From assembly GCA_914767715.1 (NCBI GenBank), contig OU612068.1:8618001-8682000 (forward strand): a stretch of DNA of 64,000 bases. The letters are read 5' to 3'. The notes below the pieces were generated by a model that did not search any database, was not told the DNA's origin, and saw only the letters and a program-made list of their open reading frames with translations. The stretch comes from Membranipora membranacea. Its lineage: Eukaryota > Bryozoa > Gymnolaemata > Cheilostomatida > Membraniporidae. Shown one piece after another: positions 6,526 through 37,810 of this stretch. Position numbers and translations under genes: made by a program. Each line of letters opens with the position of its first letter. The stretch's first letter is position 1.

Positions 6526-6891
6526 AGGGCAACCAAGGTTTCGCAGCAATGCATTAATGGGTAGCAAATAATGTGCTGGGCAGCATCAGCTTTGTGCATT
6601 ACACGATGCAAAACTCAAAGTAGTTGCTGACTCTAAGCTGGGTAGCACTTCAGTTTAGGGGAGGTTCCAAGACTTTGCTGTAATCATTATAGAGCACAGG
6701 CTAAATAATAACAGGAACAGGAAACTGCTATGTTTAGCTGAGTTTGAGTGCCTGATGGAAGAAATGTTTCACAAGAATTCTGGCTGAATAACCATCCGAA
6801 TTATATTTTGTCTTTTTCCCCATGCAGAAGGTGAAATCTGCTATTAATCAATGGCCATCAATGAGAAGTTGTTTGAAACCTTGGTTGCCCT
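6526..6891. mobile_element. 366-bp TTAA MITE related to the 6.8-kb element at 30.76 kb
   Basis: The ends are inverted: AGGGCAACCAAGGTTTC on the left and its complement on the right. It is flanked by TTGA (6522-6525) and TTAA (6892-6895), that is, a TTAA duplication with one change. The block B counterpart has a single TTAA at 53255-53258 and no insert, giving the empty site. The terminal 17 bases equal those of the autonomous-looking element at 30764-37549, so this is its likely non-autonomous derivative. No coding sequence. Confidence 0.88.
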
Positions 6892-19076: not shown

Positions 19077-20273
19077 ATGGCAGACGCTAAGTCTCAACAG
19101 AATCAGGCTTAATGCCCAAAGTGCAAGAAGCACAATCCGAAGCATGGGTTCGGGTATTTTCCATTGTTGAAATGCTTTTTGAAGCATTGCGGGGAGTTCG
19201 GTCACTCCAAGGATAATTGTCCCAAAGTTTTGTGTTGGAATTGTGGTGGCCTCAGTCACTTTAGAGATAGCTGTGGCAATCCCAAAGTGAAGTTAATTGA
19301 AGTGTCGACCCCCAACGGCACGAAGTCATTTAAACCCAAGTCCCCGAGAAAAGCCCCCGCTGCCACAGCCCCCCGTCCTGCAGATTCAGGTTCAGAAGTC
19401 CCATTTGTTCCGTTGACCTCTCCCACGGTTCCAACCGCCACTATCCCGTCCCTTCTAGACTTGAAGACTTATTCCACTGTGCTTAAGCCTACCCCACAAG
19501 TCAAACGCCTCGCCCTGTCTTTAGTTGATACATCCAGCGAATCCCCGGCCCCTTCTAAAAAGATCGCACAAGATCTGGTCGAAGTATTTGATTCCTTTAA
19601 AGCTGATTTGGAATTGCGAGAAGGCCCGCTCGCAGAGCTTGACGCCAAGGAGGCACAGCTCGAGAAAATTTATAGAGCCAAAAGATGTCATTTAGAGGTG
19701 CGGCGCGCAGCCATCCTCAAGGCTCAAGCACAAGATAATGAGATGAGATCTGCCATGGCCAAGGCAGAAGAATTTATGAACTTTTTAAAATGCTCACTTA
19801 TGCCCAAACCTGTTGCGAGTTAACCGATCCCTGCAGAGTCATTTGAGCCGGTAGCTTCATCTCCGAAGCCAAGTTGCCCCAGTACCCCCGCCCAGGAATT
19901 AGCTCCCTCGAGCGCGTCAATTAACTCCCCGACCCCGGAAGTAGCCATTCCAGAGGCCCCTCCCCTTCCTGAGATCTTTGCAGGTAGAATTACCCAAAGA
20001 GAGTTTGTTGAGTCCGTGGAGCGAATGGATTGTCAAGATACCTCTTGGCATGAAATGAGTCAACCACTCAGTACCAGCCCAAGTACTAGACCAATTCCGT
20101 CAGCTTCCGCATCTCCCCGTTCCATGTTTAAGGCCTTAAAAGAGAAGCTTGACATTAAAGAGAAGCTGACAAACCTCAGGTCTAAGTCCATTGTCAAAAA
20201 GAAATTGGTGAAGGGGGAGGATAGTGAGGAAGACCTCCTACGGAAGGCAGACCGTCTTTGTGAGAATGATTAA
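19077..20273 (+). pseudogene. Gag-like frame with zinc knuckles, two in-frame stops
   Basis: One reading frame runs from an ATG at 19077 to TGA-free DNA ending in TAA at 20271, broken by TAA near 19110 and at 19821. The N-terminal third is Cys/His rich, with a canonical CCHC knuckle CWNCGGLSHFRDSC (CX2CX4HX4C) preceded by a variant (CX4CX4HX4C). A Pro/Ser/Ala-rich linker, a charged coiled-coil-like part (about codons 150-230) and a basic segment near the end follow. This matches the nucleocapsid part of a retroelement gag or a related nucleic-acid-binding protein. No protease, reverse transcriptase or integrase is visible. The frame is richer in G+C than its surroundings, which suggests separate origin. 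Confidence 0.6.
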
Positions 20274-30218: not shown

Positions 30219-30656
30219 GTGCAAAAACACTCCTCGCATGACACGTTGCGGCATGCAGGATGCATGAATGTTTCCATTCATGAAAACTTTGAAATTTTTT
30301 TTTGTACACACATTAGTTGCTTATTACCTTTCCAACCATGTAAGTTTTATGAAAATTTGCCAAGGCAAATACTATACCTTAAGGTGGCATTATACGGCGA
30401 CATTTCACGCTCTAGTGTAGACAGTACATCAATCAAAATTCATTCACTGGCATTATCCATAATTATTTTAATCAGCATTGTTCAGAGTTATATATCCTTT
30501 TTCAAAGGAAACTCAACACCTAAAGTACTAATTTGGGCAATATCTGGATGCTACTTATTAACTTCATTGACCCCAGTTCATAATGAGTTTATATTCTTTT
30601 CATTTCATTCAGTTCTGGTCAAGCGCAAATTTTTTTTAAAGTACATTGTTGATTAA
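30219..30656 (+). CDS. Open frame with two hydrophobic segments, unknown
   Basis: The frame is open for 145 codons and has two membrane-like spans (about residues 77-96 and 105-122). Its 3' end overlaps the repeated 'ggtcaagcgcaaatt' sequence that follows the TM exons in other units. It may be a derived exon of the same membrane-protein family or chance. I see no close copy. Confidence 0.25.
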   Translation: MQKHSSHDTLRHAGCMNVSIHENFEIFFCTHISCLLPFQPCKFYENLPRQILYLKVALYGDISRSSVDSTSIKIHSLALSIIILISIVQSYISFFKGNSTPKVLIWAISGCYLLTSLTPVHNEFIFFSFHSVLVKRKFFLKYIVD

Positions 30657-31361
30657 AAACTTGCAAACCTATCCCTTCTTACTCGCACATAAATACTTCT
30701 TCTAGATTACCGCCATCGTGTATTAAAAAAATTCCAGTTTTTATGTCATTTTTTTATTATTAAAGGGCAACCAAGGTTTCACATAGCTCAGAAGCTAACT
30801 TATAATGCAGTATTACACCCTTATGACCCAGCTTTTGACCCAGAATAATCCAGATTGTACAATATCAGATGTTATTTATCCAATATACATACATTCCATA
30901 AATGTGATACAATAATTTATGTCAGAAAACAGGTGAAATATGAAGAGGTGTTTTACACATATGGCACACTGATTTCTGTCAGAGTCCATTAAATGATTAA
31001 TTGTGCATGTGCAGTGACCTGGAAAATGATAGGGAACGGCTAATAACGAGGATTAACGAGTAGTATCATATTGTTTATTATGCTGTGCTGGCTGCGCGTT
31101 AAATTTATCGAATACAGATTGGCTGTTTCCGGTTTCCTGCTTGAGCTTGTGGATCTTAGTCTAATATTGGGATGTATGGTAAGTATGAGCACCCCTGATA
31201 TGAAAATAAGTCAGAATATCTCGGTATAACTTTCTTTCCTCGTGTGTATCTGAAAGTTTGAGACTGTGGTGGAATTAGTTTTCCTAACATTATCCTTTGA
31301 AAAGTTGAATAGTACACCATTTATCTACTTTGTTTCGTATCTGCTAAGTTGCATTTTTACC

Positions 31362-32174
31362 ATGCATGAGTGTGATGATGGGATGGAAGTTGATGGTACT
31401 AGTTGTGAGCCTGCCAATATGATTGATAATGATGACATTGATTGTGGTGAGAGTGAATGTGCTGATCAGCATGCTGTTGTTGCTGAATCTATGAGAGGTG
31501 AAGGGAGTAGTAGTAGTGGACCCAGACCTTATTCATTTGCCCCTGTGAAGGCCTGTTCTGGGAAATATATGGCACTTTCAACCCCAACCTTGTCCCAGGG
31601 AGTTTTATTTGCCCTGGCTGAAGAAGAGGAGGATGAGGGTGATGACAGTGATAGTAGTAGTAGTAGTAGTAGTAGTAGTAGCAGCAGTACAACAACATCT
31701 TTCAATACCAGTGTAAATCTCATGGATGGCCCAATAAATATGCCTGGTTGTCTGTGTGGTCGATGCCTATGTATGGAGAAAGAATGTGAGAATGTGTGTT
31801 GCCTGCAAGAAAACTTTGATGGTGTTATATTTAGGAATGGATTTGTGCCTGGCCCTGATTCTTGTGTGTGTATGTCTGTGGAGATCCAACACATTCTTGA
31901 CCCCATCACGCTTGGCCTGGCATGGCAGCGTCAGCAGATGTTGAAAGGCTTGAAGGACCAACTGTCATTTAGAGTTATTAAGAACCGAGAGTACCGCCAC
32001 CATGCTTACGTTAGTTATGTGCAGCTGGTCCATGGGTTGATAGGTAAAAGACACCGTAAAGTGATTCCATCATGTGTGGTCAACTATATTAGGCAGTTGT
32101 GGCCAGACCCTAATGGGCGATACGTTGGATTCCGTGCACCTGAACAGGTAGAGGCAATTCAATCGATTGAATGA
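31362..32174 (+). CDS. P2X7 C-terminal (ballast) domain protein
   Basis: 270 aa from ATG 31362; the frame is open further upstream, but that part is hydrophobic and this Met precedes the acidic, Cys-containing N-terminus. Residues about 87-120 are an acidic tract and a serine run encoded by an (AGT)n microsatellite. From about residue 135 the P2X7 intracellular-domain pattern follows: CLCGRCLCM, ENVCCLQE, a long spacer, AWQRQQ, YRHHAYVSYVQLVHG, KRHRKVIPSCVVNYIRQLW, PDPNGRYVGF. In mammalian P2X7 this zinc- and guanine-nucleotide-binding domain is a channel tail; stand-alone forms are common in invertebrates. There is no channel part here. It lies inside the TTAA transposon, so it is probably cargo or an accessory protein. 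The stop codon lies in the first unit of a minisatellite. Confidence 0.85.
   Translation: MHECDDGMEVDGTSCEPANMIDNDDIDCGESECADQHAVVAESMRGEGSSSSGPRPYSFAPVKACSGKYMALSTPTLSQGVLFALAEEEEDEGDDSDSSSSSSSSSSSSTTTSFNTSVNLMDGPINMPGCLCGRCLCMEKECENVCCLQENFDGVIFRNGFVPGPDSCVCMSVEIQHILDPITLGLAWQRQQMLKGLKDQLSFRVIKNREYRHHAYVSYVQLVHGLIGKRHRKVIPSCVVNYIRQLWPDPNGRYVGFRAPEQVEAIQSIE
31653..31684 (+). repeat. (AGT)n microsatellite coding for serine
   Basis: About ten AGT triplets, ending in AGC AGC AGT, lie in frame in the P2X7-domain gene and encode most of its serine run. Length change in triplets would leave the frame intact. Confidence 0.9.
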
Positions 32175-32521
32175 TCATGTGATTGATATGAAGTGAGAGA
32201 GTGGCTGTTGTTCTGATTTTATATATATAAATGTATGTATATACGTTGATGATGGAAACAATTGAATGATCATCTGATTGACATGAAATGTGAAAGTGAC
32301 TGTTGTTCTGAGTTTATATATATAAATGTATGTATATACGTTGATGATGGAAACGATTGAATGATCATCTGATTGACATGAAATGTGTAAGTGACTGTTG
32401 TTCTGAGTTTATATATATATAAATGTATGTATATACGTTGATGATGGAAACGATTGAATGATCATCTGATTGACATGAATTGAGTGAGTGGCTCGTTTAT
32501 ATAAATATATGTACATACGTT
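32166..32521. repeat. Minisatellite, 95-97 bp unit, about 3.7 copies
   Basis: Units begin with attgaatgatcat at 32166, 32261, 32356 and 32453 and each carries 'atatacgttgatgatggaaac' near its end (the last unit is degenerate). The array starts inside the last codons of the P2X7-domain gene and lies between the 3' ends of the two convergent genes of the transposon. Confidence 0.95.
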
Positions 32522-32840
32522 GTATTAACTAACAAGGAAAAATGTATAACAAAAATTTATGTTCATAGTTATTTGTTGTGTTAACGTTGTAGATTATGGA
32601 AACAAATCAGGCAAAAAACCAGTCTACAAATCAGGTCATGGTGTGAAGTCAGAATCTGGACATATACTTCTCCTTAAGTTCTGCCAAAGATGGTTTCACT
32701 GCTGCTTTCGAGATCTTGGTAGAAGGTATCTAAAACATACATAATTTAATAATAGTAATACTTAATTTGAGACGATTGATAGGTTATCAGACTATTATTA
32801 TTGGTGTATCGACAACCCCCTTGGCATAAAAGTCACTTAT

Positions 32841-35800
32841 TCAGTTCAAAACGCTATTTTCAGAGTTGCTCCCCCATTGACCAGAGTGGGGGCAACTCTG
32901 AATGTAGGCTTTATCTAATGTTGATTTCTCTCTGCACGCTCGGTTGAGACAAAAATAAGATGATAGCATTAAATAACCACATACCACTGAACAATTTTTG
33001 GTGTGCTCCGATGCTGTAGCCATGATCCTTGCCCTGATCCTCTCTCTGAAACTGTATGTCCTTTGTACATATACCTTCCTTAGCCTGTAAGCCTTTGAGG
33101 CCTTCGACCAGGTCATCCTCATCACTGGATCTCCATTCTCATCTGTAAATTATAACAAATTCAATATATTGACCTTGATGTGTTATTGAAAATGCAATTT
33201 ACAAGAATTCTCTGGGAGCTTATTTTGTTATCTGAGCAGTCATGATATCAGTTTGATGACATACCTTTCTTCACATCTCGGTTACAATTCTCGTTATGAT
33301 CCAGAATAGCCAATTGAACACGGCCATTGTATGCTGAGGGCTCGTAATCAATTCTTTTGGATGCATAACTCAGCAACAAGCTGTGGAGGACTTCTAGTAC
33401 TCCTGTATGCTGGCCATGTGCCGTCTGCCTTAACTGACTCAGAAAGTTGGCATTAGAGATATGGCTCAGCAGAACTCTGTGAGCAGGACCATCTTTTTCA
33501 AGCCATGCAATACTCCTGTCAGCGTCCCTAAAAAAGTTTCATGATGAATGAGCAATTTGGTAAAGCTGATGCAGTGAACGCGCTATGATATTGAAATTGT
33601 TATGAAAATTATTCTTTGCTTTTTTTTATAGGTTGTGAAGAATGATGGAGCATTATTGTATACTGATGATGGCAGCAACAGAATGGATTGCGCTCAATGG
33701 ATTATAGACCTTAACCAAACGCTACTACGTATGAATTCTCAGCTTAATCGTGAAATACCTAGATATGGTGTCATGGAGACACTTCTTAAACTTTGTGTTG
33801 AATGGAAATCCACTATGGACATCAATGACGTGAAAGGCGACACTTGTGAACATTTCGACCAATAACTCAGCATCACCCCCGCAGTTTGCAGCCGACCACC
33901 AGAGGTGATTAGTGATCTCCGGGATTCAGGGTAGCAATTTTCTCCCTTCCTATATCACAGAAAACAAAACGGATTATGTACCTGAAAATAACACAAACGC
34001 GGACTAAACCATACATCCCCAGGTACGGACTGATGCTATGCTCTGGACCCTTTTATTTTCTTTCTATCATCCCTGTTACTCGCTATCTGAAATATGAAAA
34101 CAAGATTTGCTGACTGCTCTGTTACTGTTACTTGATTTATCATTAATAATATAAATTTGATGATGTCCTTCAAACTCTCAATGTCACCTTTGTTTTGCAC
34201 TTTCTGTTCAGGTTTTTAGTAATGTTTTTGGCCATATGCCAAACATCAAGCCCGTGCAATATATTTGGTTCATTTTTTCTCATGTGAGCCCGGATTGAAA
34301 TTGAGCCATCAGTGGTGATGCTCTTCAGTTTAGCTCCCAGGTCAGTCTTGGCTTCGGTGACAAGCTCCACAAAAGCCTCCTTCTCAGCCATGGTGCTGGA
34401 GCTGGTTTCAGCGCACTGCTTAGTCAAGTTGTAGGCCACTTCTCCAGTACGCTTTAGAATTAATATAAGATCTATGTGAAAACTATGATTGTTGGAAATT
34501 CAGACTTCTAGGTTGTCGAGAAATTGTCGTTGCCAATTTGCAGCTTGTCGAAACTTCCCATCATAAATGGTAATTGTGCAGAAAGTTTCCATCGGCCAGA
34601 CATGTTTACCATGGAGTCAATATAAGCTAGAGGTTAGCGATGACTTAATGTTAGCTAGCTCAAGGCTAACTCTTACTAACTAATGTTGGCTAACTTTTCC
34701 CTCTGTCAATACTTTTCCCCTCTATGCTAGTCTAAGTGCTCAGACTCCAAGGCGCAGGGAGTTACTTGCGCAAGTAACTCCCTGCGCCTTGGAGTCTGAG
34801 CACTTAGACTACCTCTATGCAGTAAATAGTGGTAAATGCATGCAAGCTGTTTTGAACCAGTGATAAGTCACTACTTACTCCATCAACCATAGTGTAGGTG
34901 CAATAGCGAGCACAGTGTCCTGGGGAATCATATCTCCCGTCGCCTGCCAACACAATATCACCTGAAAATAAAGTGTTCAATTAAAAAATTTATTCAGCAA
35001 GCAGTTTATCCATAACATGACATATTCCAGTTCAGCATTGTGTCAACAACCACTACCTACTTATCTCCCAAGTTAATATGACTGCTGTACCTTTCAGTTT
35101 GAGGTTTTCTTTAACTTTTCCGATTACTTCATTAAACTCGGCAGAAACAGCCGGCAGCACAACATTCTTCTGGTAGTCGTGATAAGTTGATGAGCTCAGA
35201 AATTGGATGTTCTCATCCTCCATGAACTTTGAAATCCCTGTATATGATTGGCCGCTGCAAAATCAAGAGGAATGTGGACCTATTGGACTGGCTTCTTATG
35301 ACCACACTGGATTTGTACGAATTAGAAGGAATTTAGAAGTCTTTCCTTAGCGTAGATTGCTATTACCAGGGACAAGCTTTGTCCTAAATTCACTAAGGCT
35401 AGTAGATTTTTAATTTCTCAGTTATATACCATAGGGAATTTTGTAATGGATCATGTCAAATAAACATACGTGAGGAATATGGAGCTAGAGATGTCCACAT
35501 TCCCCATAGCTTTTCTTCCTAACGCAGGCTGAGAGTGCCACGTCCGCTGATACAAGCACTTGGTACATCTAGTCCATACGATCAGCATGCTGCCCTTATG
35601 TTCACTAAAACCATACTTGAGGGTGCTGTTACATCTGTCACATTTAATCTGTTGAAAGTCAAACATTATCTTTTATCAGCTGGAATTTTAAAATTCAAGT
35701 GTGCGCATTCCGCTCTTCTCTGACATGTGAATTCGAACGCTTGAGAAGTTGCCTTTCCCTTCACATTAATACTTGTAATAATAATCAATATCAATCTTAA

Positions 35801-37221
35801 TCAAGACTTACCAAGTTAAATAGCTCAGCTATAGCAGACTGGTAAATAATATGCTTTCGTGTGGGATCTATCTCCTGTACGGAGCTTTCGAAAGAATCTG
35901 CTTCGTCTTCAGCGTAACCTGAAGGTGTATAGCTGCTGTCCTCAGGGTCCAACACTGGATAACAATACAGAAGCAGAAAATGTATGCAAGTTTTTTTCTG
36001 TGTTATTGAACTCCAGCATCCCTCGGATATTACTCCATCCTGTTCAAAGCTTGAGCTCTAGACTATCTAACTCAACTCAAAACTTTACTTTTTCTGCTCA
36101 GTGAACTTTCAACTTCCAGAAATGGCTGATACATGTATTACCAGTAACATATCAATATATTTGTTTAGCTGGAGAAGAAAATTCTATTACCATCATCAGA
36201 AACATCCACATCTGAAGCCTCAGAGTACACAAATCCCATGGCAGCATCAGTTGGGGCATAGTTTTCCTGCAATATGAATAACAGTTATTCAGCTGTAGAT
36301 TTTCCAGTCTTGACTTATTTTCGGTCAGCCTAGCAGAGCTAAGGACACATCCATAAATTCTAATATGCATCGTTTACATTTGAATATAGCAACAGAGCGC
36401 TGTTTGGATAGTAAATATTACTATAACCGTCACAAAACAGAAACATGTCATCATTAAATAGTTCACTCATCTACCTTAGCAGGCATCTCTTGCTCCTCCA
36501 TCAAGGTCCTGAGATGCTTGGGGCCAGGCTCTACAGGGGTTGAGTGCATGAACTCAGGTTTGGTATACTGCAAAACATAGATGAACTAATTGTTGCTGCG
36601 GCTTCTTGAATTATCTTGTGTGTTAAAATGGTCATCAGTACATGGTGTGTTTTCAATCATCAGCTACTCATGAAGGGAACAGGGGTGAAGTAAACTTGCT
36701 GATGAATTGTGAGTTGGTCACTCCTTTAGGATTTTGTCTATGGAACTTGAAAAACAACTGAGTCAAGATGATGTTATGTTTTACGCAGGAGTTATGGCCT
36801 AGTATGCATGGTTTTTTAACCTCACCTTTACACTATCAGTCTGTGTGTCAGCTGTACGCATATCCAACACAGTTTGAGTAGACATACTGTTTGCTGTTAT
36901 CTCATCTGTTTGAGTTGACATGTCTTTTTGTCCTGAAAATTGTTGAGGGACAACCCCATGTCTTATGTGTTTTGCTAGAGAGCAACCCTTCTTTACAGTG
37001 TACACAAAATCTTGTTGATCAAAATGCAGGGAACATATTTTGAACCTAGTAAACCCTATATTGCAGAAGTTATGCAACTCAAAATCTAGGTACCATCCAC
37101 TTTGATGCAGATAAAGATGAGCTAGTTTTGCAGGTATAGAGTGGAATGTTATGTCTGAGCTAGATGTTGAGGATTTGCAGTGTTTGAAGAAACATGTCTT
37201 GGTTGAAGAGAATGCCATCAT
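32841..37221 (-). CDS. THAP-domain transposase of the TTAA element
   Basis: Minus-strand gene; exons by frame and GT-AG sites: 37221-36826, 36567-36475, 36266-36191, 35954-35812, 35648-35470, 35254-35091, 34961-34879, 34451-34188, about 33916-33759, 33537-33265, 33142-32985 (or on to a stop at 32841). Exon 1 is a THAP finger: CFFKHC, FHSIPA, a Trp and ICSLHF. Exon 5 has CDRCN...CTKC. Exons 7-9 carry the family core: GDGRYDSPGHCARY, SITTDG, GLDVWHMAKNI and NHLWWSAANCGGDAEL; exon 10 has HTGVLEVLHSLLLSYASKR and LAILDHNEN. This is the order of the multicopy invertebrate THAP/DDE-like proteins. Exon 8 may carry a one-base frame change near 34190, and the start of exon 9 has a weak acceptor, so the gene may be damaged. 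Acidic residues of the GDG and TTDG motifs are probable catalytic ones (inference). Confidence 0.82.
32862..32901. repeat. 40-bp hairpin
   Basis: cagagttgctcccccattg is followed by its imperfect complement (agtgggggcaactctg), with a few bases of loop. A related, more degenerate form is near 16955-16995. It overlaps the 3' end of the transposase gene and may act as a structured 3' signal or be a small inserted foldback. Confidence 0.7.
34729..34810. repeat. 82-bp perfect palindrome
   Basis: Two 41-base arms meet without spacer at 34769/34770 and are perfect complements over their whole length (centre ttgcgcaa). It lies in an intron of the THAP transposase gene. Adjacent bases outside the arms do not continue the symmetry. 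Confidence 0.97.
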
Positions 37222-37599
37222 TTATTGTTATTGCTAGAGGAATTACACATCAAATTTGCCGCGATCAATACTACTGGTATAATAGAATGATAAGTGATGC
37301 AAGGCATTCAGTAATCATAATGACTTTATATTGTTGTTGTCTGCATGCATTCAGTAAGTTCTCAGACTAACAGAAAAATCCGTAGTATTTCCAGGTCACT
37401 TTACAGCCTCAAACAAATGAAGATTATTTTTATTTCAAGAGCTCGTAACTCCAATTTATTAATTTAAATTTATCAAAAAAGTGATATCACAGTCATGATA
37501 GAGTACCTCAGTCATTATAAGCTCAATAGATTGAAACCATGGTTGCCCTTTAATATTAATTCATCTCCACTTCCCAGGTGTCTAGAGTGGATATTTTGT

Positions 37600-37810
37600 G
37601 GATATGTGGATATGTAACACCGATTTATCGGGAAAGAGATGGAGACATTATGTATTTGTCATATTAAAGATGGGATGTAGGAGCTGGTGGGGATAGAGTG
37701 TCAGGCAGTGGCAACTGTGGTCAAGGGAAAAGGGGAAGACGGCACACAACATCTAGGAATGCACAGCAGGGGTATGAACAGCTAAACAGAGAGTTTTTAA
37801 TAATTAGCGA
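37600..37810 (+). pseudogene. Broken tail exon (block B)
   Basis: Counterpart of 985-1210. A short frame reads SGSGNCGQGKRGRRHTTSRN and GYEQL, as in the intact tail exons, then diverges into the same downstream sequence as the block A copy (cttgcacactgattccg). The ITAM-like part is absent. Confidence 0.7.

What the first reader, a model, noticed from the sequence alone, without database searches (positions are those of the whole stretch)
30764..37549. Intact-ended TTAA transposon carrying a P2X7-ballast-domain gene with a THAP transposase
Inverted ends (AGGGCAACCAWGGTTTCA) and TTAA on both sides define a 6.8-kb element that encodes a THAP/DDE-like protein and, convergently, a stand-alone P2X7 C-terminal domain protein. 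THAP plus TTAA is the Kolobok combination. A ballast-domain protein as transposon cargo or accessory factor would explain why such stand-alone domains are so numerous in invertebrate genomes, and is not a standard part of Kolobok as I know it.
Basis: partly seen in the sequence, partly recalled or inferred. Interest (0 to 1): 0.85.

Follow-up and report, generated by a model that had tools for sequence, protein, structure and literature searches.

The report
Kolobok transposon with its KolX gene
This is a jumping gene of a known kind (a Kolobok DNA transposon) that carries, beside its transposase, a second gene related to the inner tail of the animal ATP receptor P2X7; that pairing was published in 2022, so the element is a good new example and not a new kind of system.

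Summary
Window 30764-37549 is one 6,786-bp element with 18-bp inverted ends and TTAA on both sides. It encodes a 12-exon THAP/DDE transposase (minus strand) and, convergently, a P2X7-ballast (P2RX7_C) protein. Two other full copies (6,788 bp, 98-99% identical, different flanks, TTAA both sides) carry both genes. The ballast gene is not chance cargo: 36 of 67 ballast loci found lie within 8 kb of a Kolobok transposase match, all 36 convergent, in six families by my assignment. Ballast and transposase distances correlate across eight families (Mantel r 0.79; 5 of 40,320 permutations).

The claimed novelty fails. Kojima & Bao (2022) reported that the Kol0 lineage encodes KolX, that KolX resembles the P2X7 ballast, and that P2X7 arose by fusion with it. 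The window transposase has an in-frame stop; an open copy exists. Not found in print: two related Kolobok families whose KolX lost most zinc cysteines but kept the C-terminal core, and co-inheritance within one genome. KolX is best read as a co-inherited accessory factor of unknown biochemistry. Against this, 39 of 75 transposase loci had no KolX nearby.

The parts
30760..30763 (.). TTAA target-site duplication, left
30764..30781 (+). left terminal inverted repeat AGGGCAACCAAGGTTTCA
31362..32174 (+). KolX gene, single open frame of 270 codons plus stop from its first ATG, P2RX7_C (ballast) domain; frame open from 31254
   Evidence: profile match to P2X7 structures; no stop in the three full copies
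32164..32479 (.). 95-bp tandem repeat, 3.3 copies, from the last codons of KolX into the gap between the two genes
32649..37221 (-). Kolobok transposase gene: 12 modelled exons, all introns GT-AG, 696 codons; N-terminal THAP domain (exon 1, 37221-36826), first-D exon 34961-34879, second-D/DVWH exon 34451-34188, zinc-finger-like exon 33949-33759, last-acid exon 33527-33265
   Evidence: exon model, checked on other copies; THAP PF05485
33926..33928 (-). in-frame TGA stop in transposase exon 9 of the window copy; copies without it exist
34719..34820 (.). nested 84-bp perfect palindrome (34728-34811) with 9-bp flanking repeat CCTCTATGC, in transposase intron 7; absent from four older copies
   Evidence: absence in copies C1, C2, C9 and C4:3.89M; 378 genome-wide hits of its 35-mer arm
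37532..37549 (-). right terminal inverted repeat AGGGCAACCATGGTTTCA
37550..37553 (.). TTAA target-site duplication, right

Best explanation
The element is a Kolobok-superfamily DNA transposon of the KolX-bearing (Kol0-type) kind. Shown: TTAA target sites, AG termini, a THAP/DDD-E transposase with the DxxH signature, a convergent KolX gene with a P2X7-like ballast domain, and mobility of the whole 6.8-kb unit (three full copies with different flanks). Shown: KolX and transposase occur together in several families of this genome, convergent in every pair found, and their divergence is correlated. Inferred: transposase binds the 18-bp ends through THAP, cuts there and integrates at TTAA; KolX is a second protein of the same element, kept because it helps transposition or its regulation (for example a zinc-binding partner or cofactor of the transposase), later reused by hosts in Nanor and in P2X7 (the last step is Kojima & Bao's claim). 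The window copy needs transposase made elsewhere, because its own gene has a stop. Identity is near certain; the accessory role is about 65% likely; its biochemistry is open.
For: TTAA and inverted ends on three full copies with different flanks, 6786/6788/6788 bp. THAP and P2RX7_C over Pfam cut-offs. 12-exon transposase model, all introns GT-AG, with every splice site kept in the two other full copies, one of them without a stop. A four-sequence KolX profile matches P2X7 structures 9e3q, 6u9v, 8tr5, 9e3m over the ballast region, best E 4.9e-9, seven cysteines aligned. Census: 36 of 67 merged KolX loci within 8 kb of a Kolobok transposase match, 36 of 36 convergent. Three of seven further loci read at length had a divergent, convergent transposase that the search missed. 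Mantel r 0.79, 5 of 40,320 permutations. Published description of KolX.
Against: KolX is not universal: 39 of 75 Kolobok-like transposase loci had no KolX match within 8 kb. Of the 31 KolX loci without a transposase match, four of the seven sampled showed none within about 5 kb on the expected side, and two more (L036, L038) none within 1.5 kb either side. Differences among the three young copies are too few to show purifying selection on KolX (3-4 nonsynonymous against 0-1 synonymous; pN/pS 1.05, 0.79, and undefined for the third pair); for transposase pN/pS was 0.40-0.50. The DxxH piece scores weakly and below cut-off against Pfam Mutator (E 2.2e-4) and DDE_Tnp_ISL3 (E 0.0067), no Kolobok model being listed. 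No function was measured. The transposase was not placed on a tree with Repbase Kol0 references.
Confidence: 0.82

Rival explanations
1. KolX is a host-directed factor of the element (for instance against silencing or for timing in the germ line or early embryo), not a part of the transposition reaction.
For: 39 of 75 transposase loci had no KolX match within 8 kb. Nanor, a relative, is a zygotic gene of the zebrafish midblastula transition, for which a role in transcription was hypothesised (passages of PMC7016195). Two families dropped most zinc cysteines and still pair with transposase.
Against: The pairing and correlated divergence with transposase fit a direct partnership as well or better. 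No host target is known to me.
Confidence: 0.25
2. The ballast gene is chance cargo or a nested insertion in one Kolobok copy.
For: Nearly all sequences with the same 18-bp ends (1,256 exact hits) cannot carry KolX: only 11 loci with coding remains of this family were found, two of them with transposase remains and no KolX (broken or rearranged on the KolX side).
Against: The short same-ended elements lack the transposase too: 8 of 8 fetched TIR loci (1.5 kb each side, two overlapping) gave no blastn match to the element at E 1e-5. All 3 full copies carry both genes. The same convergent pair recurs in five other families by my assignment, and TTAA-bordered ends of their own were read for three of those (B, C, D).
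Confidence: 0.03
3. The element is a piggyBac transposon, which also uses TTAA and of which a few carry a KolX-like protein.
For: TTAA target; Kojima & Bao mention piggyBac families with a KolX-like C-terminal part lacking most cysteines.
Against: THAP domain, DVWH signature and zinc-finger-like exon, AG terminus. The Pfam scan of five transposase pieces listed no piggyBac family.
Confidence: 0.01

Closest known systems
Kolobok Kol0 lineage with KolX (Kolobok-1_XT; Kojima & Bao 2022, PMC9587614)
   [quoted passage not shown] TTAA target; RR termini; KolX similar to the P2X7 C-terminal ballast.
   Different: This family has its own 18-bp ends and sequence. I did not compare it with the Repbase entries, which are not held. 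Two related families in this genome have a KolX without most zinc cysteines.
Xenopus Kolobok elements (XKol; PMC6004289, passages seen)
   Same: THAP (C2CH), DDE and H2CH motifs; TTAA flanks; AG ends; related short non-autonomous elements (T2-MITE). Full-length elements listed there run 6,763-13,907 bp.
   Different: The main text has 0 occurrences of KolX and of P2X7.
P2X7 receptor cytoplasmic ballast and Nanor (Rump et al. 2020, PMC7016195, passages and section 11)
   Same: Ballast domain with conserved zinc cysteines.
   Different: These are host genes: P2X7 has the domain fused to a channel, and Nanor is a short stand-alone protein.
KolobokP / KolobokE / KolobokD / KolobokH
   Same: Kolobok lineages with an accessory protein beside the transposase.
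   Different: Their accessories are nucleases or a helicase. KolobokP also has long terminal direct repeats; none is among the 20 largest direct-repeat families shown for this region.

Membership tests
Kolobok superfamily | TTAA target-site duplication | tested here: met
   TTAA on both sides of all three full copies
Kolobok superfamily | termini 5'-RR ... YY-3' | tested here: met
   AG...CT in this family. A sister family (L024/L025) starts TTAA-AC, an apparent exception read at one end only
Kolobok superfamily | DDD/E transposase with C/DxxH between second D and last acid | tested here: met
   TTDG...DVWH in exon 8 and a conserved E in exon 10 across five families; acid positions assigned by eye
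Kolobok superfamily | zinc finger downstream of C/DxxH | tested here: inconclusive
   Exon 9 NHLWWSAANC...HV...H reads like it and recurs in family B; not scored against a model
Kolobok superfamily | THAP DNA-binding domain | tested here: met
   PF05485 E 5.3e-6, 27.6 bits against cut-off 23.9
Kol0 lineage | encodes KolX | tested here: met
   P2RX7_C over cut-off; profile match to P2X7 ballast
Kol0 lineage | transposase groups with Kol0 families in a tree | not tested
   Repbase reference sequences are not held
P2X7 ballast domain | seven zinc cysteines | tested here: met
   CxCxxC, CC, C and PxC present in the window KolX and aligned with P2X7 in the profile match; not met in the family D and G proteins aligned (P0005, L081)
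P2X7 ballast domain | same three-dimensional fold | tested here: inconclusive
   AlphaFold2 model from 7 sequences had mean pLDDT 33, too poor to search
piggyBac | piggyBac DDE transposase | tested here: not met
   No piggyBac family listed for the five transposase pieces scanned; the transposase is THAP/DVWH type
KolobokP | long terminal direct repeats of about 450 or 660 bp | tested here: not met
   No such repeat among the 20 largest direct-repeat families shown for window 30500-37800

The most novel reading that the evidence does not exclude
KolX is a co-evolving, near-obligate second protein of its Kolobok lineages. Its working part is the C-terminal core (RYHAYRxY...HGxLG...R..xPxC...IR...YxGF), not the zinc ballast, since two related families keep the core and the pairing after losing most zinc cysteines. 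The zinc ballast that gates P2X7 behaviour would then be the dispensable half of a transposition factor.
Probability: 0.3. Interest if true: 0.55.

Novelty: new member of a known kind. Interest (0 to 1): 0.3.

Why it matters
It supports, in one genome and with full copies, the 2022 proposal that stand-alone ballast-domain genes of animals are parts of Kolobok transposons, and it gives a genome with many young and old KolX/transposase pairs in which the unknown role of KolX can be tested. It also cautions that ballast genes linked to the same neighbours in distant animals, as reported by Rump et al. 2020, may be a transposon keeping its own gene order and not ancestral synteny (inference; their markers were not identified here).

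Tried and rejected
Chance cargo, nested insertion and piggyBac were considered and rejected (see rivals). A structure prediction of KolX gave mean pLDDT 33 and was not used; no fold search was run. A single-sequence PDB search of KolX ranked complement factor H-type chains above P2X7, all at E 0.058 or worse, with P2X7 at 0.54; I take those as weak cysteine-driven matches, and the four-sequence profile put P2X7 first, with factor H-related chains still at 0.007. Selection on KolX from the three young copies was uninformative. The protein database gave one relative of the window KolX, 95% identical, in a JGI metagenome, and 11 with the profile. Rfam had no match in the window at gathering thresholds. 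As a check on the transposase queries, six TIR loci without KolX gave no match. The host species was not identified.
Full report
What is there. Window 30764-37549 is a single 6,786-bp element. Its ends are AGGGCAACCAAGGTTTCA and, inverted, AGGGCAACCATGGTTTCA, each bordered by TTAA. The plus strand carries one open frame (31254-32174, first ATG at 31362) that matches Pfam P2RX7_C at E 1.9e-11. The minus strand carries a transposase gene. I modelled it as 12 exons from 37221 down to 32649, with every intron GT-AG and one reading frame of 696 codons. Exon 1 is a THAP domain (PF05485, E 5.3e-6), exon 7 holds GDGRYDSPG (taken as the first acid), exon 8 holds TTDG and DVWH, exon 9 a zinc-finger-like stretch and exon 10 the last acid. 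The assignments of the acids are by eye. The exon 8 piece scores only weakly, below cut-off, against Pfam Mutator and DDE_Tnp_ISL3. In the window copy one codon of exon 9 (33926-33928) is TGA. An exon-by-exon comparison showed one copy (C5) open throughout under this model and one (C3) with an insertion bearing a stop in exon 1.

It moves as a unit. With the same ends there are two more full copies, at C5:12306750-12313537 and C3:27086179-27092966, both 6,788 bp, 98.9% and 98.3% identical to the window copy by blastn, with different flanks and TTAA on both sides. All three carry both genes, and none has a stop in KolX. Protein searches found 11 loci of this family: nine with KolX remains and nine with the second-D exon, seven loci having both. 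Apart from the three full copies they lack one or both ends, or were not followed to both ends. Of the two transposase-only loci, the one on C4 at 3.89 Mb stops matching before KolX and the one on C1 at 26.22 Mb is rearranged on the KolX side; neither is a KolX-free full element.

The short elements. The 18-mer has 1,256 exact hits (639 and 617 by strand) against 0 for the reversed control. Among the 100 places listed there are 11 inward-facing pairs 359-1,020 bp apart, start to start. Eight fetched loci (1.5 kb each side, two overlapping) and the 366-bp element at window 6526-6891 gave no blastn match to the element at E 1e-5, a threshold that the 18-bp ends alone do not reach; the window one shares the ends. 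Those nine lack the transposase as well, so their lack of the ballast gene does not bear on the pairing. The other ends were not read.

Is the ballast gene part of the element kind? I merged the ballast-domain hits and the transposase hits (hits that cover only its N-terminal part were left out, because they do not hold the ballast domain). This gave 67 KolX loci and 75 transposase loci. 36 KolX loci had a transposase match within 8 kb, and 36 of 36 were convergent. The 36 are not independent. By sequence they fall, in my assignment, into six families (A, the window's, 7; B 2; C 2; E 2; D 13; G 8) and two single loci. Families B, C and D have their own TTAA-bordered ends (TTAA-AGGAACAATACAC, TTAA-ACCGACTGTTCAC, TTAA-AGTAGATCACAAC), read on one side only, as the point where copies stop matching. 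Of the 31 KolX loci without a match I fetched seven at 5-6 kb. Three (L078, L079, L080) have a more divergent Kolobok transposase, DSWH or DDWH type, again convergent. Four (L082-L085) showed none within about 5 kb on the expected side; L082 is a copy of the L078 family with the transposase side missing. Of the other 24, two are broken family A copies, one (L034) is a family D copy with a THAP-like piece on the opposite strand but no other transposase match in 1.5 kb, two (L036, L038) gave no transposase match within 1.5 kb either side, and 19 were not followed up. Against the pairing: 39 of the 75 transposase loci had no KolX match within 8 kb, so Kolobok transposases without a detectable KolX are common here; the literature also knows lineages with transposase alone.

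Co-inheritance. For eight families (A, B, C, E, G, and those of L078, L079, L080) I compared identity distances of the second-D/DxxH peptide with those of the KolX core. The Mantel correlation was 0.79, with 5 of 40,320 exact permutations as high. Among A, B, C and E alone it was 0.81 (the best of 24). Short peptides and my choice of segments limit this test; family D was left out because its transposase was only partly in hand, and the G peptide joins two exon pieces. The simplest reading is that KolX and transposase have descended together since before these families split.

What KolX looks like. A profile of four KolX proteins finds P2X7 structures first (9e3q_A, E 4.9e-9, residues 449-591; 6u9v, 8tr5, 9e3m follow), with CxCxxC, CC, C and PxC aligned, i.e. 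seven cysteines, the number that Kojima & Bao give for the zinc sites. Several relatives share an N-terminal PTPYxFAPTK motif. In the proteins of families D and G that I aligned (L028, L081) the CxCxxC and CC cysteines are gone and the C-terminal core remains; D is over the Pfam cut-off, G just under it (36.1 and 23.0 bits against 23.5). Kojima & Bao report such cysteine loss for piggyBac proteins. G is Kolobok by similarity of its transposase to that of the window element, and D by similarity to G; their THAP-like matches are below the curated cut-off.

Prior knowledge. Kojima & Bao 2022 (PMC9587614; outline, search passages and sections 10, 12 and 16 read) state that the originally reported Kol0 group encodes transposase plus KolX, that KolX is similar to residues 476-595 of human P2X7, that the ballast-like proteins of diverse animals are part of Kolobok families, and that P2X7 and probably Nanor derive from KolX. 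In the paper library KolX occurs in that paper alone, and Kolobok with P2X7 in it and one review with one unrelated mention of each. Rump et al. 2020 (PMC7016195; passages and section 11 read) had described the domain across animals, with 0 occurrences of words beginning with transpos in the main text, and reported two linked markers as ancestral synteny, which may be transposon self-linkage (my inference, untested). I did not see the supplementary files of either paper. That the cysteine-poor Kolobok KolX and the co-inheritance test are not in print rests only.

How it most likely works. General knowledge of cut-and-paste elements, with the TTAA duplication reported for Kolobok, gives the frame: transposase cuts at the ends and inserts at TTAA. 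Inferred: the THAP domain reads the ends, and KolX assists or regulates. The convergent arrangement, the open KolX frames in young copies, and the correlated divergence argue for a kept function. Its absence from other Kolobok loci argues that this function is special to these lineages or replaceable.

Verdict. Real, well bounded and correctly read as Kolobok, but of a kind already described. The remaining interest lies in the unknown role of KolX.

Noticed in passing
window 34728-34811: 84-bp perfect palindrome with a 9-bp flanking repeat CCTCTATGC, in transposase intron 7. Present in the three young full copies, absent from copies C1, C2, C9 and C4:3.89M. Its 35-mer arm has 378 exact genome hits, control 0: a palindromic short element.
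   Followed up: partly
window 6526-6891: 366-bp element with the same 18-bp ends (one mismatch at the left end; left flank TTGA, right flank TTAA) and no other match to the large element.
   Followed up: partly
L026, L027, L028, L034 (family D) and L081 (family G): Kolobok families whose KolX, as read in these loci, lacks the CxCxxC and CC zinc cysteines but keeps the C-terminal core.
   Followed up: partly
genome G000, one search places such as C11:11765994-11766389: Many loci match only parts of the first 135 or so residues of the family C KolX, at up to 94% identity, without the ballast domain: perhaps internally deleted elements that keep the KolX start.
   Followed up: no
L024 795 / L025 792: Family C begins TTAA-ACCGACTGT, which does not fit the 5'-RR rule for Kolobok ends.
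   Followed up: no
window 19113-19823: 236-codon open frame with a weak CCHC zinc-knuckle match (E 0.0059, below cut-off) and a weak Drc1-Sld2 match (E 0.00085, below cut-off); gag-like in look, not followed further.
   Followed up: no
window 32164-32479: 95-bp tandem repeat, 3.3 copies, overlapping the last codons of KolX; repeats are also seen in other copies of the element.
   Followed up: no
L082-L085: KolX loci with no transposase found within about 5 kb on the expected side: broken elements or candidates for host-domesticated genes.
   Followed up: partly
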